From Corynebacterium sp. (lineage in GTDB: Bacteria; Actinomycetota; Actinomycetes; Mycobacteriales; Mycobacteriaceae), in assembly GCF_012837295.1 (NCBI RefSeq), contig NZ_DURI01000053.1:1-42668 (forward strand): 42,668 nt of DNA. Direction: 5' to 3'. Below the pieces are notes generated by a model. It was not told the DNA's origin. It did not search any database and saw nothing but the letters and a program-made list of their open reading frames with translations. Below, one piece after another: positions 37,376-42,294 of the stretch. The position numbers and the translations under genes were made by a program. The stretch's first letter is position 1, and every line of letters begins with the position of its first letter.

Positions 37376-38140
37376 TCACTGAATCGCGAGCGCGTCCACG
37401 TCGGCGTAGGAGATGACGGACGGGGCCAATCCACCGCCCGCGACGTTTGCGGCAACATCGACCGCGGTCTGGAGCGCGGCCCGGTACAACAGCGAACCGG
37501 TGGACACCCTCCGCACGCCGACGCCCGCAAGGGCCGGCACCGAGTGGCGGGCCGACGCCAGCGCGTTGACCGGCCGGGGGATCTCCCGGCACAACACCTC
37601 GAGGTCCTCCAGGTCGAGGTTGCCGGGAATGAAAATGCCGTCCGCGCCGGCGTCGACGTAAGCATGCGCTCGACGCAACGTTTCGGCGACGTCGGCCTTT
37701 TCGCCCAGCCAGTAGGTGTCGACCCGCGCATTGACGAAGAGGGCGGGGCAGCGTTCCTTCACCGCCGTGATTTTCTCCGCATGGCGCGCAGGATCCGACA
37801 ACGAGCCGCCGGTTCCGTCCTCCAGATTGATTCCGTCGCTCCGCAAGGTTGCGACGAAGTCCGCCACCTCCGCCGGATCCGGGGAAAAGCCATCCTCGAC
37901 GTCGATGGTCACGGGACACGGCAGCGTGCGCAACATCCGCGCGAGGGCCGACGTCGCGTCCCGCGCCAGACCGCTCGCGTCCGGCGCCCCCATCGCCGCC
38001 GCCACCCCGAGACTCGTGGTGCCGACTGCCTGGAAACCCGCCTGGGCGAACAGCATCGCCGACGCATGATCCCAGGCGTTGGGCAACACCAGGGGCTCAT
38101 CCAGATGGTGGAGATCATGGAACCGCGAAGTCGTGGACAT
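37376..38140 (-). CDS. Isocitrate lyase / PEP mutase family enzyme
   Basis: A 254-residue TIM-barrel protein of the ICL/PEPM superfamily. VLPNAWDHASAMLFAQAGFQAVGTTSLG opens the barrel as usual, TIDVEDGFSPDP and INLEDGTGG hold the metal-binding acidic residues, and FVNARVDTYWLG is the RxD motif. Members cleave or form C-C or C-P bonds of oxaloacetate-like substrates (methylisocitrate lyase, oxaloacetase, phosphonopyruvate hydrolase). The subfamily without the KKCGH loop, as here, is usually of unknown substrate. The ATG at 38140 is chosen; the 1168-codon frame in the ORF track is an artefact crossing the McrB gene on the other strand. Confidence 0.87.
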   Translation of the reverse strand: MSTTSRFHDLHHLDEPLVLPNAWDHASAMLFAQAGFQAVGTTSLGVAAAMGAPDASGLARDATSALARMLRTLPCPVTIDVEDGFSPDPAEVADFVATLRSDGINLEDGTGGSLSDPARHAEKITAVKERCPALFVNARVDTYWLGEKADVAETLRRAHAYVDAGADGIFIPGNLDLEDLEVLCREIPRPVNALASARHSVPALAGVGVRRVSTGSLLYRAALQTAVDVAANVAGGGLAPSVISYADVDALAIQ

Positions 38141-38282
38141 GCCCCGATGGTGCCAGGTATCGACCGGTGCAACCCGAGAAATTTTCTGGGGGACGGGAGC
38201 GCGAGACCCACCACCCTCGAAACCGCTACATACTGGAGACGACAGCTCGAACCAGTGACCTGAATGGTCGGACGGTCGAATC

Positions 38283-38318: not shown

Positions 38319-38329
38319 AGAGGAGAGCC

Positions 38330-41080
38330 ATGCCCGAGAGAATCCGGTTGCACCCGCACGAGAGCGAACTGATCCAGCGCTGGCACGGTGCCCACATCCG
38401 TGCCGCGGAGGAATCGGAGGAGTTCCGCAGGGGTTGGCGCGCCGCCAACATCACGCCGCAGGCGGACGAGGCTCGGCGATTGCTGGACACCCTGCGACGG
38501 ACGAGGGACCTTTCGGCGTTCCAATCGGAGTCTAACCGCTGGTCCCGGAGCTTTCCCTCCGGATTCTCCGGAGTCGCGGGACAGATGATCATCAACCAAA
38601 TCGCCAAAATCGCCCCCGACCACGAAGCTGCCATCACCGTATTGCTCGATGCGCTCGAGACTCCCACGGACATCGATGACGCCGCCGAGAAGATCAAGGG
38701 CCTCGCCGACTACCTCGATTCCATCAAGGTCGGGTCGCACCCGAGCCCGGCGCGCGCGCCTTTCGTCGCGTCGTATTTTTGGGGTCTCCAGGGGCCCGAC
38801 ACGTGGCCCGTCGCGTGGCCGAAGTCGACGAACTACGTGGACTACTGCACGGGTATATCTGCTTACGCAGATCAGGGAGACCGGTACCGCGAGCTGCACC
38901 GATTCGCCACGGAGTTGGACGGAGACATCGTCCGCTTCGAAGAAGTCGCCGCATGGTGGGCAGACAACGACTCCGCGCTCATCGATGATTCCCTCTGCGA
39001 CCGCGCCGCATGGCGCGTGAACGAGTTGCGCGAGGGCGCGGATCCGGAGCAGTTCCGCAACAACGCCCAGGCATTGGTGAACGTCGCAGCCCACCTGGGG
39101 GCCGTGCTCGAGTTGGCGATCTCCGAAGCGGCGGGACGGACGCTCAAAGCGAAGAAGCCCTCTGTCATGTGGCAGGAGCTTCGGCCCCGCGGCGATATGT
39201 GGGTGGACTGGCGCGTTCCCGGCACTTATGGACTGTCCGTCCGCGCGTGGCTGAATGCGCATGGGATTGCCATTGGTCTGCGGCCGTTTCCGCATGCCGA
39301 CGCCGGCGCCACGGAGGAGGCCGCCGGAATCATCGAGGCGTCCCCTCTGGGCGGATACGAAATCATCGCCGGTGGTCGATCGAAGATCGGCGTCGACCGG
39401 GGTTTCGTCGGTGGAGGCAGCGGCGAGGTGCTCTACGGAAAATGGTTCGACCGCAGTGAAATCCCGTCGCTGGACTTCGCCGCCGAAATGGTCCGGACCG
39501 CGCGCGACGTCGCCCCGCTGATGGCACAGCTCAATGGCGACGTCGAGGAGTCCGCCGACGACGACGATCTCGCGGCTCTCGTCTCCGAATTCACGTCCTC
39601 GGGATACCCGACGGAAGACGACGAACAGCACCGCGCCGACCGGCGGGATTTCGCGAAGACCCTTGACCCCATGGAATTGGAGGTGACGGACACTGCGGAA
39701 TTGCGCAGAATCTGGAACTCGCGACGATTTGGCTCCACCGGCCCCATGTCCGTCCTGAACACGAGCCTCCGCGACGCCGACGACGCGGAGTACGAACGCA
39801 TCCTCCGCACGATTTCGTACCTCTGTTGGGACGACGGGGAACCGGTGGCCACGAGAATCGATCGGGTTCTCGGCGACAAGAAGCTCAGGGTCAAGGGCCT
39901 CGGGGAATCGGTCATCATGAAGTTGCTGGCGATCTGCCATCCCGAACGATTCATCACGGTGTACCCCTACAACGGCCCCAAGGGGAAGTTGAAAATGCTC
40001 CGCGAACTGGGGATCGAGCCTCCGGCCGCGTCGTCTCGGGGTGAGCTGCAAGTCGCGTCCAACGATGTGCTGCGCGATCGACTGGATCGGCATTTCCCGG
40101 GCGACGCCTGGGGAATCGGTTCCTTCCTCTACTGGCTCATCGAGCGCGATGACGAGGTGGAGGCGGAATCCGAAACCGATCCGCTCGACGATCTCGCCGA
40201 AGAGCTTCTCGTCGACAGGGAGTTCATCGACGACATCGTCGCGCTTCTGAAGGACAAAGGTCAGGTCGTGTTTTACGGCCCGCCCGGCACGGGCAAGACG
40301 TTCTTCGCCCGAAAGCTGGCCGCGGCGCTCGTCCCGGACGTGGAACGCCGGCCGATCGTGCAATTTCATCCCTCGACGTCGTACGAGGACTTCTTCGAGG
40401 GATACCGCCCGGAAACCGACGTCGAAGGCGCGATGACGTATCAGCTGAAGCGGGGCCCTCTCGCAGACCTCGCCGCTCGCGCGGCGGAATCCTCGAGGGC
40501 CCGTCACATCATGATCATCGACGAGATCAATCGGGCGAATCTGCCGAAGGTCCTCGGCGAACTTCTGTTCCTCCTCGAATACCGGGACACCCCGGTCCGC
40601 ACGTTGTACCGGCCCGACGATCCATTCGTGCTGCCCAAGAACGTCTGGTTCATCGGCACGATGAACACGGCGGATCGATCCATCGCGTTGGTCGACGCCG
40701 CATTGCGCCGTCGCTTCCACTTCGTCCCCTTCTTCCCCAATCACGGAAAGATGTCCGGGCTCCTGGAGAAATGGTTGGAACGCAACGACGAGCCCGCATG
40801 GGTGGGTGAACTCGTCGCACAGGTCAACGACGAACTCGAAATCGAACTCGGCGGACCGCACCTGCAGCTGGGTGCGAGCCATTTCATGAAACGCGGATTG
40901 AACAAGGACACGATGCGGCGCATCTGGGAGTACAACATCGCGCCGTTCATCGAAGATCAGTTCTTCGGGGATCCGGAACTCATCGACCGATTCGGTTTTG
41001 ACCGGGTCTGGGCCCGATTCGAGAACGTCGCAGAAGAATCGATTGCGGAGGATTCCGCAACACCCGTTACGGACGGCTGA
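38330..41080 (+). CDS. mcrB: McrB-like AAA+ GTPase/ATPase with large N-terminal region
   Basis: A 916-residue NTPase motor, the McrB subunit of a modification-dependent (type IV) restriction system; McrB recognises modified DNA and drives cleavage by McrC. The AAA+ part is residues 620-880: Walker A YGPPGTGKTFFARKL near 650, Walker B IMIIDEINRANLPK near 727, and the McrB hallmark GTMNTADRSIALVDAALRRR near 777. The first 600 residues are unlike the short E. coli N-domain and seem to hold three modules: 1-220 (with APFVASYFWGLQGPDTWPV), 235-400 (with LSVRAWLNAHGIAIGLRPF), and 440-600 with a helix-hairpin-helix-like VKGLGESVIMKLLAICHPER. AGGAG lies 4 nt before the ATG at 38330. Composition looks less GC-biased than the neighbours, suggesting transfer. 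Target modification unknown. Confidence 0.88.
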   Translation: MPERIRLHPHESELIQRWHGAHIRAAEESEEFRRGWRAANITPQADEARRLLDTLRRTRDLSAFQSESNRWSRSFPSGFSGVAGQMIINQIAKIAPDHEAAITVLLDALETPTDIDDAAEKIKGLADYLDSIKVGSHPSPARAPFVASYFWGLQGPDTWPVAWPKSTNYVDYCTGISAYADQGDRYRELHRFATELDGDIVRFEEVAAWWADNDSALIDDSLCDRAAWRVNELREGADPEQFRNNAQALVNVAAHLGAVLELAISEAAGRTLKAKKPSVMWQELRPRGDMWVDWRVPGTYGLSVRAWLNAHGIAIGLRPFPHADAGATEEAAGIIEASPLGGYEIIAGGRSKIGVDRGFVGGGSGEVLYGKWFDRSEIPSLDFAAEMVRTARDVAPLMAQLNGDVEESADDDDLAALVSEFTSSGYPTEDDEQHRADRRDFAKTLDPMELEVTDTAELRRIWNSRRFGSTGPMSVLNTSLRDADDAEYERILRTISYLCWDDGEPVATRIDRVLGDKKLRVKGLGESVIMKLLAICHPERFITVYPYNGPKGKLKMLRELGIEPPAASSRGELQVASNDVLRDRLDRHFPGDAWGIGSFLYWLIERDDEVEAESETDPLDDLAEELLVDREFIDDIVALLKDKGQVVFYGPPGTGKTFFARKLAAALVPDVERRPIVQFHPSTSYEDFFEGYRPETDVEGAMTYQLKRGPLADLAARAAESSRARHIMIIDEINRANLPKVLGELLFLLEYRDTPVRTLYRPDDPFVLPKNVWFIGTMNTADRSIALVDAALRRRFHFVPFFPNHGKMSGLLEKWLERNDEPAWVGELVAQVNDELEIELGGPHLQLGASHFMKRGLNKDTMRRIWEYNIAPFIEDQFFGDPELIDRFGFDRVWARFENVAEESIAEDSATPVTDG

Positions 41081-41085
41081 CGACG

Positions 41086-42294
41086 ATGGTCGTCTTGAGC
41101 GAGTACTCCTTCGTGGATCTCGACCTCACCGGTCGCCAAGCCGCAGCACTGCAGCGAACCGGTTTCGTCACCGTCAGCCCCCTCGCCGGTGATTCCTGGC
41201 GGGTGACGGCGTCATCCTTCGTCGGGTCGCTGGTGGTCGATGGCGTCGAATTGCTGATTCGCCCGAAGATCAACGCCGAAAATCTGTTTCTTCTGCTGGA
41301 GCCCGGGCTTCCTCCAAACGCGTGGCGCCGAGAATCCTTCGACTACGGCGCCTCCCCGGATCTGCTGCCGGCCGTGATTTCCTTCTTCGCCAAAACCGTC
41401 GAGACGACTTTGGGCCGCGGAATACTGCGGTCGTACGAGTCGCGCCGCGATGATTTGATCGCACTGCGGGGCCGCATGGATTTCACCGGGCAGTTTCGGA
41501 TGGGAGGGACATCGTCCCCCGTGGCCTGCAGCTTCGACGAGTACTCGCAAAACACGCCGGAAAATCGGGCACTCAAGGCCGCGGTCCGAAAGTCGCTGCG
41601 TGCACCACGCATCTCCCCTGCGATCCGTCGGCTTTTGTTGGGGCACGTTTCCGCTCTGGAGGACGTCGATGACGTTTCGGTCTCCCCCGGCGACATCGAC
41701 GCCATCACATGGAATCGACTCAATCAGCACTATGAGCCGGCATTGCGGCTCGCTCGGCTCATCCTCGCCAACCTGACTTTGATGGACACCGAAGGCGCCA
41801 ACTCTGCGCAATCCTTCACGGTGGACATGAATGATCTATTCCAGCGGTTCGTGACCGAACGCCTGCGACGGGTGCTTCGCGGACGGGCCATCGTCAAGGG
41901 CGAACCGACCCACCACCTCGGCGTGGGTCGCCAAATCCCGATGCAGCCGGATCTCGTCTTCACCTCGACCGATGGCGCCACCAATTTCGTCGGCGACGTC
42001 AAGTACAAGATCACCACCGACGCCCGAGCCCGGAGCCAGGACTACTACCAGCTCCTCGCGTACGTCACGTCCCTCGGCCTGCCCGAGGGGATCCTCATCT
42101 ACTGCGGCTCGGACCCCGGGGGCTCGCAAAGGACCGTGCGGATCCGCAACACCGACAAGAGACTCACCGTGCACGCACTCGATTTATCGGGAACCCCCGC
42201 TCAGGTCGAGGATCAGATCCATTCACTCGCGGACGGAGTGACGGCCGCCATGCACCGTGCACGCACCCGCGCGGAGCATTCGAATCGACAGTGA
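41086..42294 (+). CDS. mcrC: McrC-like nuclease subunit
   Basis: A 402-residue McrC-family protein, the nuclease partner of McrB. The N-terminal region is the McrB-binding part (VDGVELLIRPKINAENLFLLL, ILRSYESRRDDLIALRGRMD and DEYSQNTPENRALKAAVR, all typical of McrC). The C-terminal PD-(D/E)xK site is QPDLVF near residue 287 and FVGDVKYK near 303, with the helix DYYQLLAYV after it. All catalytic residues are present, so it should be active. It begins 5 nt after the mcrB stop, has only a weak ribosome site, and is probably translated by coupling. Confidence 0.9.
   Translation: MVVLSEYSFVDLDLTGRQAAALQRTGFVTVSPLAGDSWRVTASSFVGSLVVDGVELLIRPKINAENLFLLLEPGLPPNAWRRESFDYGASPDLLPAVISFFAKTVETTLGRGILRSYESRRDDLIALRGRMDFTGQFRMGGTSSPVACSFDEYSQNTPENRALKAAVRKSLRAPRISPAIRRLLLGHVSALEDVDDVSVSPGDIDAITWNRLNQHYEPALRLARLILANLTLMDTEGANSAQSFTVDMNDLFQRFVTERLRRVLRGRAIVKGEPTHHLGVGRQIPMQPDLVFTSTDGATNFVGDVKYKITTDARARSQDYYQLLAYVTSLGLPEGILIYCGSDPGGSQRTVRIRNTDKRLTVHALDLSGTPAQVEDQIHSLADGVTAAMHRARTRAEHSNRQ

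What the first reader, a model, noticed from the sequence alone, without database searches (positions are those of the whole stretch)
38330..42294. McrBC-type defence operon with an unusual multi-module McrB
The AAA+ and nuclease parts are standard (MNTADRS hallmark, intact PD-ExK), but the McrB-like protein carries about 600 residues ahead of the motor, where the classical protein has about 160. They appear to form three modules, one with a WGLQGPDTWPV segment and one with a helix-hairpin-helix-like stretch. These should define which DNA or modification is recognised, so the system may target something other than methylcytosine.
Basis: partly seen in the sequence, partly recalled or inferred. 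Interest (0 to 1): 0.7.

Follow-up and report, generated by a model that had tools for sequence, protein, structure and literature searches.

The report
McrBC with an undescribed three-domain reader
A Corynebacterium defence operon has a standard DNA-translocating motor and DNA-cutting enzyme, but the part that should recognise foreign DNA is built from two diverged copies of a helical, DNA-repair-enzyme-like module around a third domain, a combination absent from the protein-family libraries searched, so what it recognises is unknown and can be tested.

Summary
ORF 38330-41080 is a 916-residue McrB and 41086-42294 a 402-residue McrC with an intact PD-DxK site (not ExK). About 612 residues precede the motor, against about 164 in E. 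coli McrB. None matches a Pfam, NCBIfam, PADLOC, PHROGs or PDB sequence, so EVE, YTH, SRA and ADAM are not detected.

Confident AlphaFold2 models (pLDDT 91 and 96) and profile comparison suggest that N3 is an HhH-GPD (DNA-glycosylase)-like helical domain without the catalytic Asp/Lys, that N1 is a diverged copy of N3, and that N2 resembles YktB/DUF1054. The N3-glycosylase link rests on structure alone; profile alignment failed.

The arrangement is an actinobacterial family. N1-N2 travel as a unit. N3 is lost or gained repeatedly, occurs in tandem pairs in other McrBs, and occurs outside McrB on zinc-ribbon proteins. No methyltransferase accompanies the operon.

Best reading: a Type IV (modification-dependent) McrBC with an undescribed composite reader. 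Specificity is untested. This is a new variant of a known kind; the long N-terminus itself is ordinary among the McrBs fetched here.

The parts
38321..38325 (+). AGGAG, likely ribosome-binding site of mcrB, four bases before the ATG at 38330
   Evidence: sequence printed
38330..41080 (+). mcrB-like gene, 916 aa
38330..39025 (+). Module N1 (residues 1-232): all-helical; holds the WGLQGPDTWPV segment; W151, W159, W163 invariant in 45 relatives; same helix order as N3
   Evidence: alignment A1, model pLDDT 91.4, profile match to N3, helix agreement
38780..38812 (+). WGLQGPDTWPV segment of N1 (residues 151-161), counterpart of the HPERFITVYP segment of N3
39026..39535 (+). Module N2 (residues 233-402): alpha/beta domain, YktB/DUF1054-like, with the PRGDMWVDWR motif (R287 invariant)
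   Evidence: Foldseek 2a8e E=1.9e-3, probability 1.0; profile match above 200 of 200 shuffles
39587..40153 (+). Module N3 (residues 420-608): helical, HhH-GPD-glycosylase-like, lacking the catalytic Asp and Lys
   Evidence: model pLDDT 95.7; Foldseek; residue counts
39845..39937 (+). Helix-hairpin-helix of N3 (residues about 506-536, VKGLGES hairpin)
   Evidence: DSSP of the model and conservation
40163..41077 (+). McrB AAA+ GTPase motor (residues 612-916); Walker A at 650, IMIIDEINR from 727, MNTADRS at 778
41086..42294 (+). mcrC-like gene, 402 aa, PF10117
41950..42003 (+). McrC nuclease motif PD289...D304-x-K306
   Evidence: conserved in 71-72 of 72 relatives

Best explanation
This is a Type IV (modification-dependent) McrBC restriction system. 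McrB forms a GTP-driven hexamer activated by McrC; when the N-terminal modules hold recognised DNA, the motor translocates and the McrC PD-DxK nuclease cuts (motor and nuclease shown by homology; mechanism inferred from E. coli and Thermococcus McrBC). The recognition part is a composite: N1 and N2 form one unit, and N3 is an add-on. N1 and N3 are diverged copies of a helical HhH-GPD-glycosylase-like module and N2 is a YktB-like alpha/beta domain. N3 has the hairpin and conserved basic residues (K/R at hairpin+6 in 43 of 44, at +28 in 44 of 44) but lacks the glycosylase catalytic residues, so it should bind DNA, possibly with a displaced or modified base, without excising it (inferred). N1-N2 set the primary specificity and N3 adds affinity or site discrimination (inferred from N3 being dispensable). 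The recognised modification is unknown.
For: Motor and nuclease. Described reader folds not detected. N3 fold: 49 of the 50 best PDB matches are HhH-GPD glycosylases; hairpin-to-catalytic-residue spacing equals Nth/MutY (second G to position +20), with Tyr/Phe there in 37 of 44 and Asp in 2. N1 = N3: profile score 22.4 against a maximum of 21.0 in 200 column shuffles; helix/coil agreement, not used in the alignment, peaks at 81% exactly in register and falls to about 40% ten residues away. N2 = YktB-like: (24.1 against a shuffle maximum of 21.7). Modularity. No adjacent methyltransferase or recurrent partner except McrC in 49 loci.
Against: Each single N3-glycosylase match is weak (best E=0.17, query TM at most 0.39) and profile-profile alignment of N3 with Nth/MutY is not significant. 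N1-N3 by sequence alone is P about 0.015. No coordinates were available for superposition. No data on DNA binding, modification or phage defence exist here. Reader function is inferred from position only.
Confidence: 0.6

Rival explanations
1. The N-terminus recognises 5-methylcytosine or N6-methyladenine like known McrBs, only with a different fold; nothing new in specificity.
For: E. coli, Thermococcus and H. pylori McrB-type proteins already use structurally unrelated N-domains for 5mC, 6mA and a sequence-specific site (PMC7680126). Winged-helix Mrr_N domains sit in front of N3-N3-McrB in relatives.
Against: No known 5mC or 6mA reader domain was detected in N1-N3.
Confidence: 0.4
2. A LlaJI-like modification-sensitive system in which the N-terminus reads a DNA sequence and a methyltransferase protects the host.
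For: The H. pylori LlaJI.R1 B3 domain is a precedent for site-specific binding by McrB relatives (PMC7680126).
Against: No recurrent methyltransferase near 49 N1-N2 loci; one motif hit in one locus, not examined further.
Confidence: 0.12
3. N1-N3 are protein-interaction or assembly modules, or sense a phage protein or RNA, and do not read DNA bases.
For: N3 also occurs outside McrB on zinc-ribbon proteins; zinc ribbons and helical modules can mediate protein contacts.
Against: HhH-GPD-like fold and invariant basic residues point to nucleic acid; the position equals that of DNA-reading domains in studied McrBs.
Confidence: 0.2

Closest known systems
Escherichia coli K-12 McrBC
   Same: Two-gene operon; AAA+ GTPase with MNxxDRS; McrC with the same D...DxK site.
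   Different: N-terminus about 612 residues instead of about 164; no ADAM/DUF3578 match; McrC only distantly similar (E=0.0013).
HhH-GPD DNA glycosylases (MutY, OGG1, Nth)
   Same: N3 model: helix-hairpin-helix, hairpin-to-catalytic-position spacing, nearest PDB folds.
   Different: Catalytic Asp is Tyr/Phe and catalytic Lys is Ser in most members; no significant sequence match; only partial structural overlap.
YktB / DUF1054 (PF06335; PDB 2a8e)
   Same: Alpha/beta fold of N2, target TM 0.64, probability 1.0; PRGDMWVDW-like segment aligned with NPPADSWVAF.
   Different: YktB is a single-domain protein of unknown function; no Pfam-level match; family absent from 21 near genomes searched.
CoCoNuTs and other McrB branches (Bell et al. 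2024, PMC11090510)
   Same: McrB with long composite N-terminus.
   Different: No coiled-coil or cold-shock domain was found by Pfam here; canonical NxxD motif; PD-DxK nuclease intact. The paper's main text names no HhH, glycosylase or DUF1054 domain; its supplements were not readable.

Membership tests
McrBC (Type IV restriction) | AAA+ GTPase with Walker A/B and MNxxDRS | tested here: met
McrBC (Type IV restriction) | Adjacent McrC with PD-(D/E)xK nuclease | tested here: met
   PF10117 E=5e-48; D289, D304, K306 conserved
McrBC (Type IV restriction) | N-terminal domain that binds modified DNA, and modification-dependent cleavage | not testable with these tools
   needs binding and restriction assays; absence of an adjacent methyltransferase is only indirect
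ADAM/DUF3578, EVE, YTH, SRA, B3 reader families | Sequence match of the N-terminus to the family profile | tested here: not met
   no Pfam match for the protein or for 45 N1-N2 and 44 N3 members; none of these folds among the PDB matches shown
HhH-GPD DNA glycosylases | HhH-GPD fold | tested here: inconclusive
   49 of 50 best PDB matches for N3 but all weak; no profile significance
HhH-GPD DNA glycosylases | Catalytic Asp at hairpin +20 | tested here: not met
   Tyr in the window; Tyr/Phe in 37 of 44, Asp in 2 of 44
DUF1054 / YktB | Match to PF06335 or the fold of 2a8e | tested here: inconclusive
   fold match E=1.9e-3, profile score above 200 of 200 shuffles, but no Pfam match
CoCoNuT | Coiled-coil McrB with NxD motif and associated nucleases | tested here: not met
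   MNTADRS is NxxD; N-terminus is three globular modules

The most novel reading that the evidence does not exclude
Catalytically dead DNA-glycosylase-like domains, duplicated and diverged, have been recruited as base-flipping readers for a restriction motor. With the YktB-like domain they recognise a DNA modification (possibly a phage hypermodified base) that no described McrB reader recognises, and the same module serves as a reader in other defence proteins.
Probability: 0.22. Interest if true: 0.75.

Novelty: new variant of a known kind. Interest (0 to 1): 0.5.

Why it matters
McrB N-domains decide which modified DNA is destroyed, and only a few reader folds are known. A modular, repeatedly shuffled reader built on a glycosylase-like scaffold would add one, give the YktB/DUF1054 fold a possible role, and offer a new candidate binder of modified DNA. 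Natural pairs with and without N3 make its role directly testable.

Tried and rejected
EVE/YTH/SRA/ADAM/DUF3578/B3 as the N-terminal modules: no match. LlaJI-like system with a methyltransferase: no recurrent methyltransferase. N3 as an active glycosylase: catalytic Asp and Lys not conserved. Profile-profile alignment of N3 with Nth and MutY from related genomes: not significant. Viral structure library with N3: nothing. Viral contigs with N1-N2 and N3: no relatives. Pfam's 'Diatom pyrenoid component 2' weak match to N1: far below cut-off, chance. Empty-site test: the left flank occurs in only one other Corynebacterium genome of 200, so no comparison was possible. Phage record MT835671 with an N3 protein: the neighbouring ORFs (sensor-kinase- and response-regulator-like) look bacterial, so it was not taken as a phage gene. 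L028 and L031, counted as 'N3 only' in the tree, are probably artefacts (a split reading frame; a run-through ORF), so the count of changes is slightly inflated.

Full report
WHAT IS THERE. The operon lies at 38330-42294 on the + strand. mcrB is best started at 38330 (916 aa): AGGAG precedes it by a few bases, and relatives align from there. mcrC follows after a five-base gap (41086-42294). The operon's G+C is 62.8% against 69.2% for the window, with a lower third-position G+C (0.79 and 0.77) than nearly all neighbours (mostly 0.83-0.97), which suggests recent acquisition. The same operon is 99.5-100% identical in Corynebacterium xerosis NBRC 16721, so the window is C. xerosis or very near it.

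MOTOR AND NUCLEASE ARE STANDARD. The AAA+ part matches NF008457 (E=1.5e-42) and E. coli McrB structures (E about 1e-44), with residue 614 corresponding to E. coli residue 165. McrC matches PF10117 (E=5e-48). The nuclease site is PD289...D304-x-K306, kept in 71-72 of 72 McrCs, the same D-DxK arrangement as the catalytic residues of E. coli and Thermococcus McrC (PMC7680126).

THE N-TERMINUS. Residues 1-610 have no acceptable match in Pfam, NCBIfam, PADLOC or PHROGs, nor in PDB sequences, for the window protein; alignments of 45 N1-N2 regions and 44 N3 regions found nothing in Pfam or PDB sequences either. AlphaFold2 models from these alignments are confident: N1-N2 mean pLDDT 91.4, pTM 0.88; N3 95.7, pTM 0.91. 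N1 is all-helical, N2 alpha/beta, N3 all-helical with a clear helix-hairpin-helix. The high pTM suggests that N1 and N2 pack as one unit.

N3 RESEMBLES HhH-GPD GLYCOSYLASES. Of the 50 PDB matches shown, 49 are MutY, OGG1, other OGG or Nth. Each is individually weak (E 0.17 or worse, query TM at most 0.39), but so uniform a class among 350,542 chains is not expected by chance. The spacing from the second hairpin glycine to the catalytic Asp of Nth/MutY, 20 residues in the sequences of related genomes, is also the spacing to a conserved Tyr/Phe in N3 (37 of 44; Asp in 2). Position +2, Lys in Nth, is Ser in 34 of 44. Basic residues at +6 (43 of 44) and +28 (44 of 44) are conserved. Profile-profile alignment with Nth/MutY is not significant, so I call it 'HhH-GPD-like', not a member.

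N1 LOOKS LIKE A DIVERGED COPY OF N3. Profile alignment pairs N1 78-221 with N3 in order, score 22.4; 200 column-shuffled controls gave at most 21.0 (mean 14.1), the reversed profile 15.9. Secondary structure was not used in that alignment, yet helix/coil states from the two models agree at 81% of positions in exactly that register and at only 33-59% when slid five or more residues. Three tryptophans of N1 (151, 159, 163) are invariant in 45 relatives down to 21% identity.

N2 RESEMBLES YktB/DUF1054. Foldseek on the N1-N2 model has one outstanding match, 2a8e (B. subtilis YktB), E=1.9e-3, probability 1.0, target TM 0.64. The Foldseek output does not give the query range; N2 is the only alpha/beta part. 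Independently, the N2 profile aligns with two DUF1054 sequences (PRGDMWVDW with NPPADSWVAF) with a score above all 200 shuffles (24.1 against 21.7). The DUF1054 sequences were read from PDB records, found with a rough YktB query recalled from memory. The function of DUF1054 is not known to me, and a paper search brought up none.

FAMILY AND MODULARITY. Relatives occur across Actinomycetota. Four architectures were seen: N1-N2-N3-motor; N1-N2-motor without N3 (including Corynebacterium pollutisoli, L046); N3-motor, often with two tandem N3 copies 36-56% identical (L041, L043, L048, L049, L050, L054) and sometimes with an Mrr_N winged helix in front; and motors with other N-termini. On a motor tree the N1-N2-only form needs 10 changes (at least 8 by well-supported branches) and the N3-only form 8, although a few rows are probable artefacts. 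In 297 genomes of the phylum, N1-N2 is found in 5 and N3 in 7, this genome included, so both are rare. In 151 Corynebacterium genomes 27 have a McrB-like motor, but only this one matches over N1-N3. N3 also occurs outside McrB: zinc-ribbon-N3 proteins in L089, L090, L136 and L137, one beside two DUF262 genes on a conjugative Paenarthrobacter plasmid.

MECHANISM. Inferred: N1-N2, with N3 as an accessory, recognises DNA; McrB hexamers translocate on GTP; McrC cuts. In 49 loci the only recurrent neighbour is McrC, and a motif scan found one possible methyltransferase in one locus, which favours modification dependence over a LlaJI-like system. Which modification is read cannot be told from sequence.

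VERDICT. An ordinary McrBC in its motor and nuclease, with an undescribed, modular N-terminal reader. The long N-terminus by itself is not rare among these relatives (median about 602 residues in 98 loci, a set biased towards relatives). The interest lies in the duplicated glycosylase-like module and the YktB-like domain.

Noticed in passing
L136:3665-4486 (Paenarthrobacter plasmid), L089:1231-2364, L090:1496-2331, L137:5710-6561: Stand-alone zinc-ribbon plus N3 proteins outside McrB. The plasmid copy lies beside two DUF262 genes between IS3 transposases; L089 is followed by a small gene containing PKYWWVNQG that looks EVE-like (not tested). They may be another defence component.
   Followed up: partly
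L083:11-4213: A 1400-residue McrB whose N-terminal extension ahead of N1-N2-N3 seems to hold two further copies of the helical module (RNALLHLVHPDTF and LSIAATLLMGVDPTRFVPW); read by eye, only one is weakly supported by the N3 profile (E=0.5).
   Followed up: partly
L122-L135 (other Corynebacterium McrB N-termini): Most carry a segment like 'IRNAxQFLxxPExFEPIS' or 'GLFWIRPETF' (11 of 13 match a loose pattern), reminiscent of the N3 core 'MKLLAIxHPExFLPVYP'; the helical module may be widespread in McrB N-termini.
   Followed up: partly
L043:7107-10337, L048:7134-10535, L056:614-2908: Mrr_N winged-helix domains (PF14338) fused in front of McrB motors, two of them with tandem N3 modules.
   Followed up: no
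L084:1400-4245: N1-N2-like region fused to a different AAA_5 ATPase, with a segment between that looks EVE-like by eye.
   Followed up: no
window 37376-38260: Gene on the minus strand left of the operon reads like an isocitrate-lyase/PEP-mutase family protein (by eye); its DNA is found in only one other genome of 200 in the genus, so the left flank may be acquired too.
   Followed up: no
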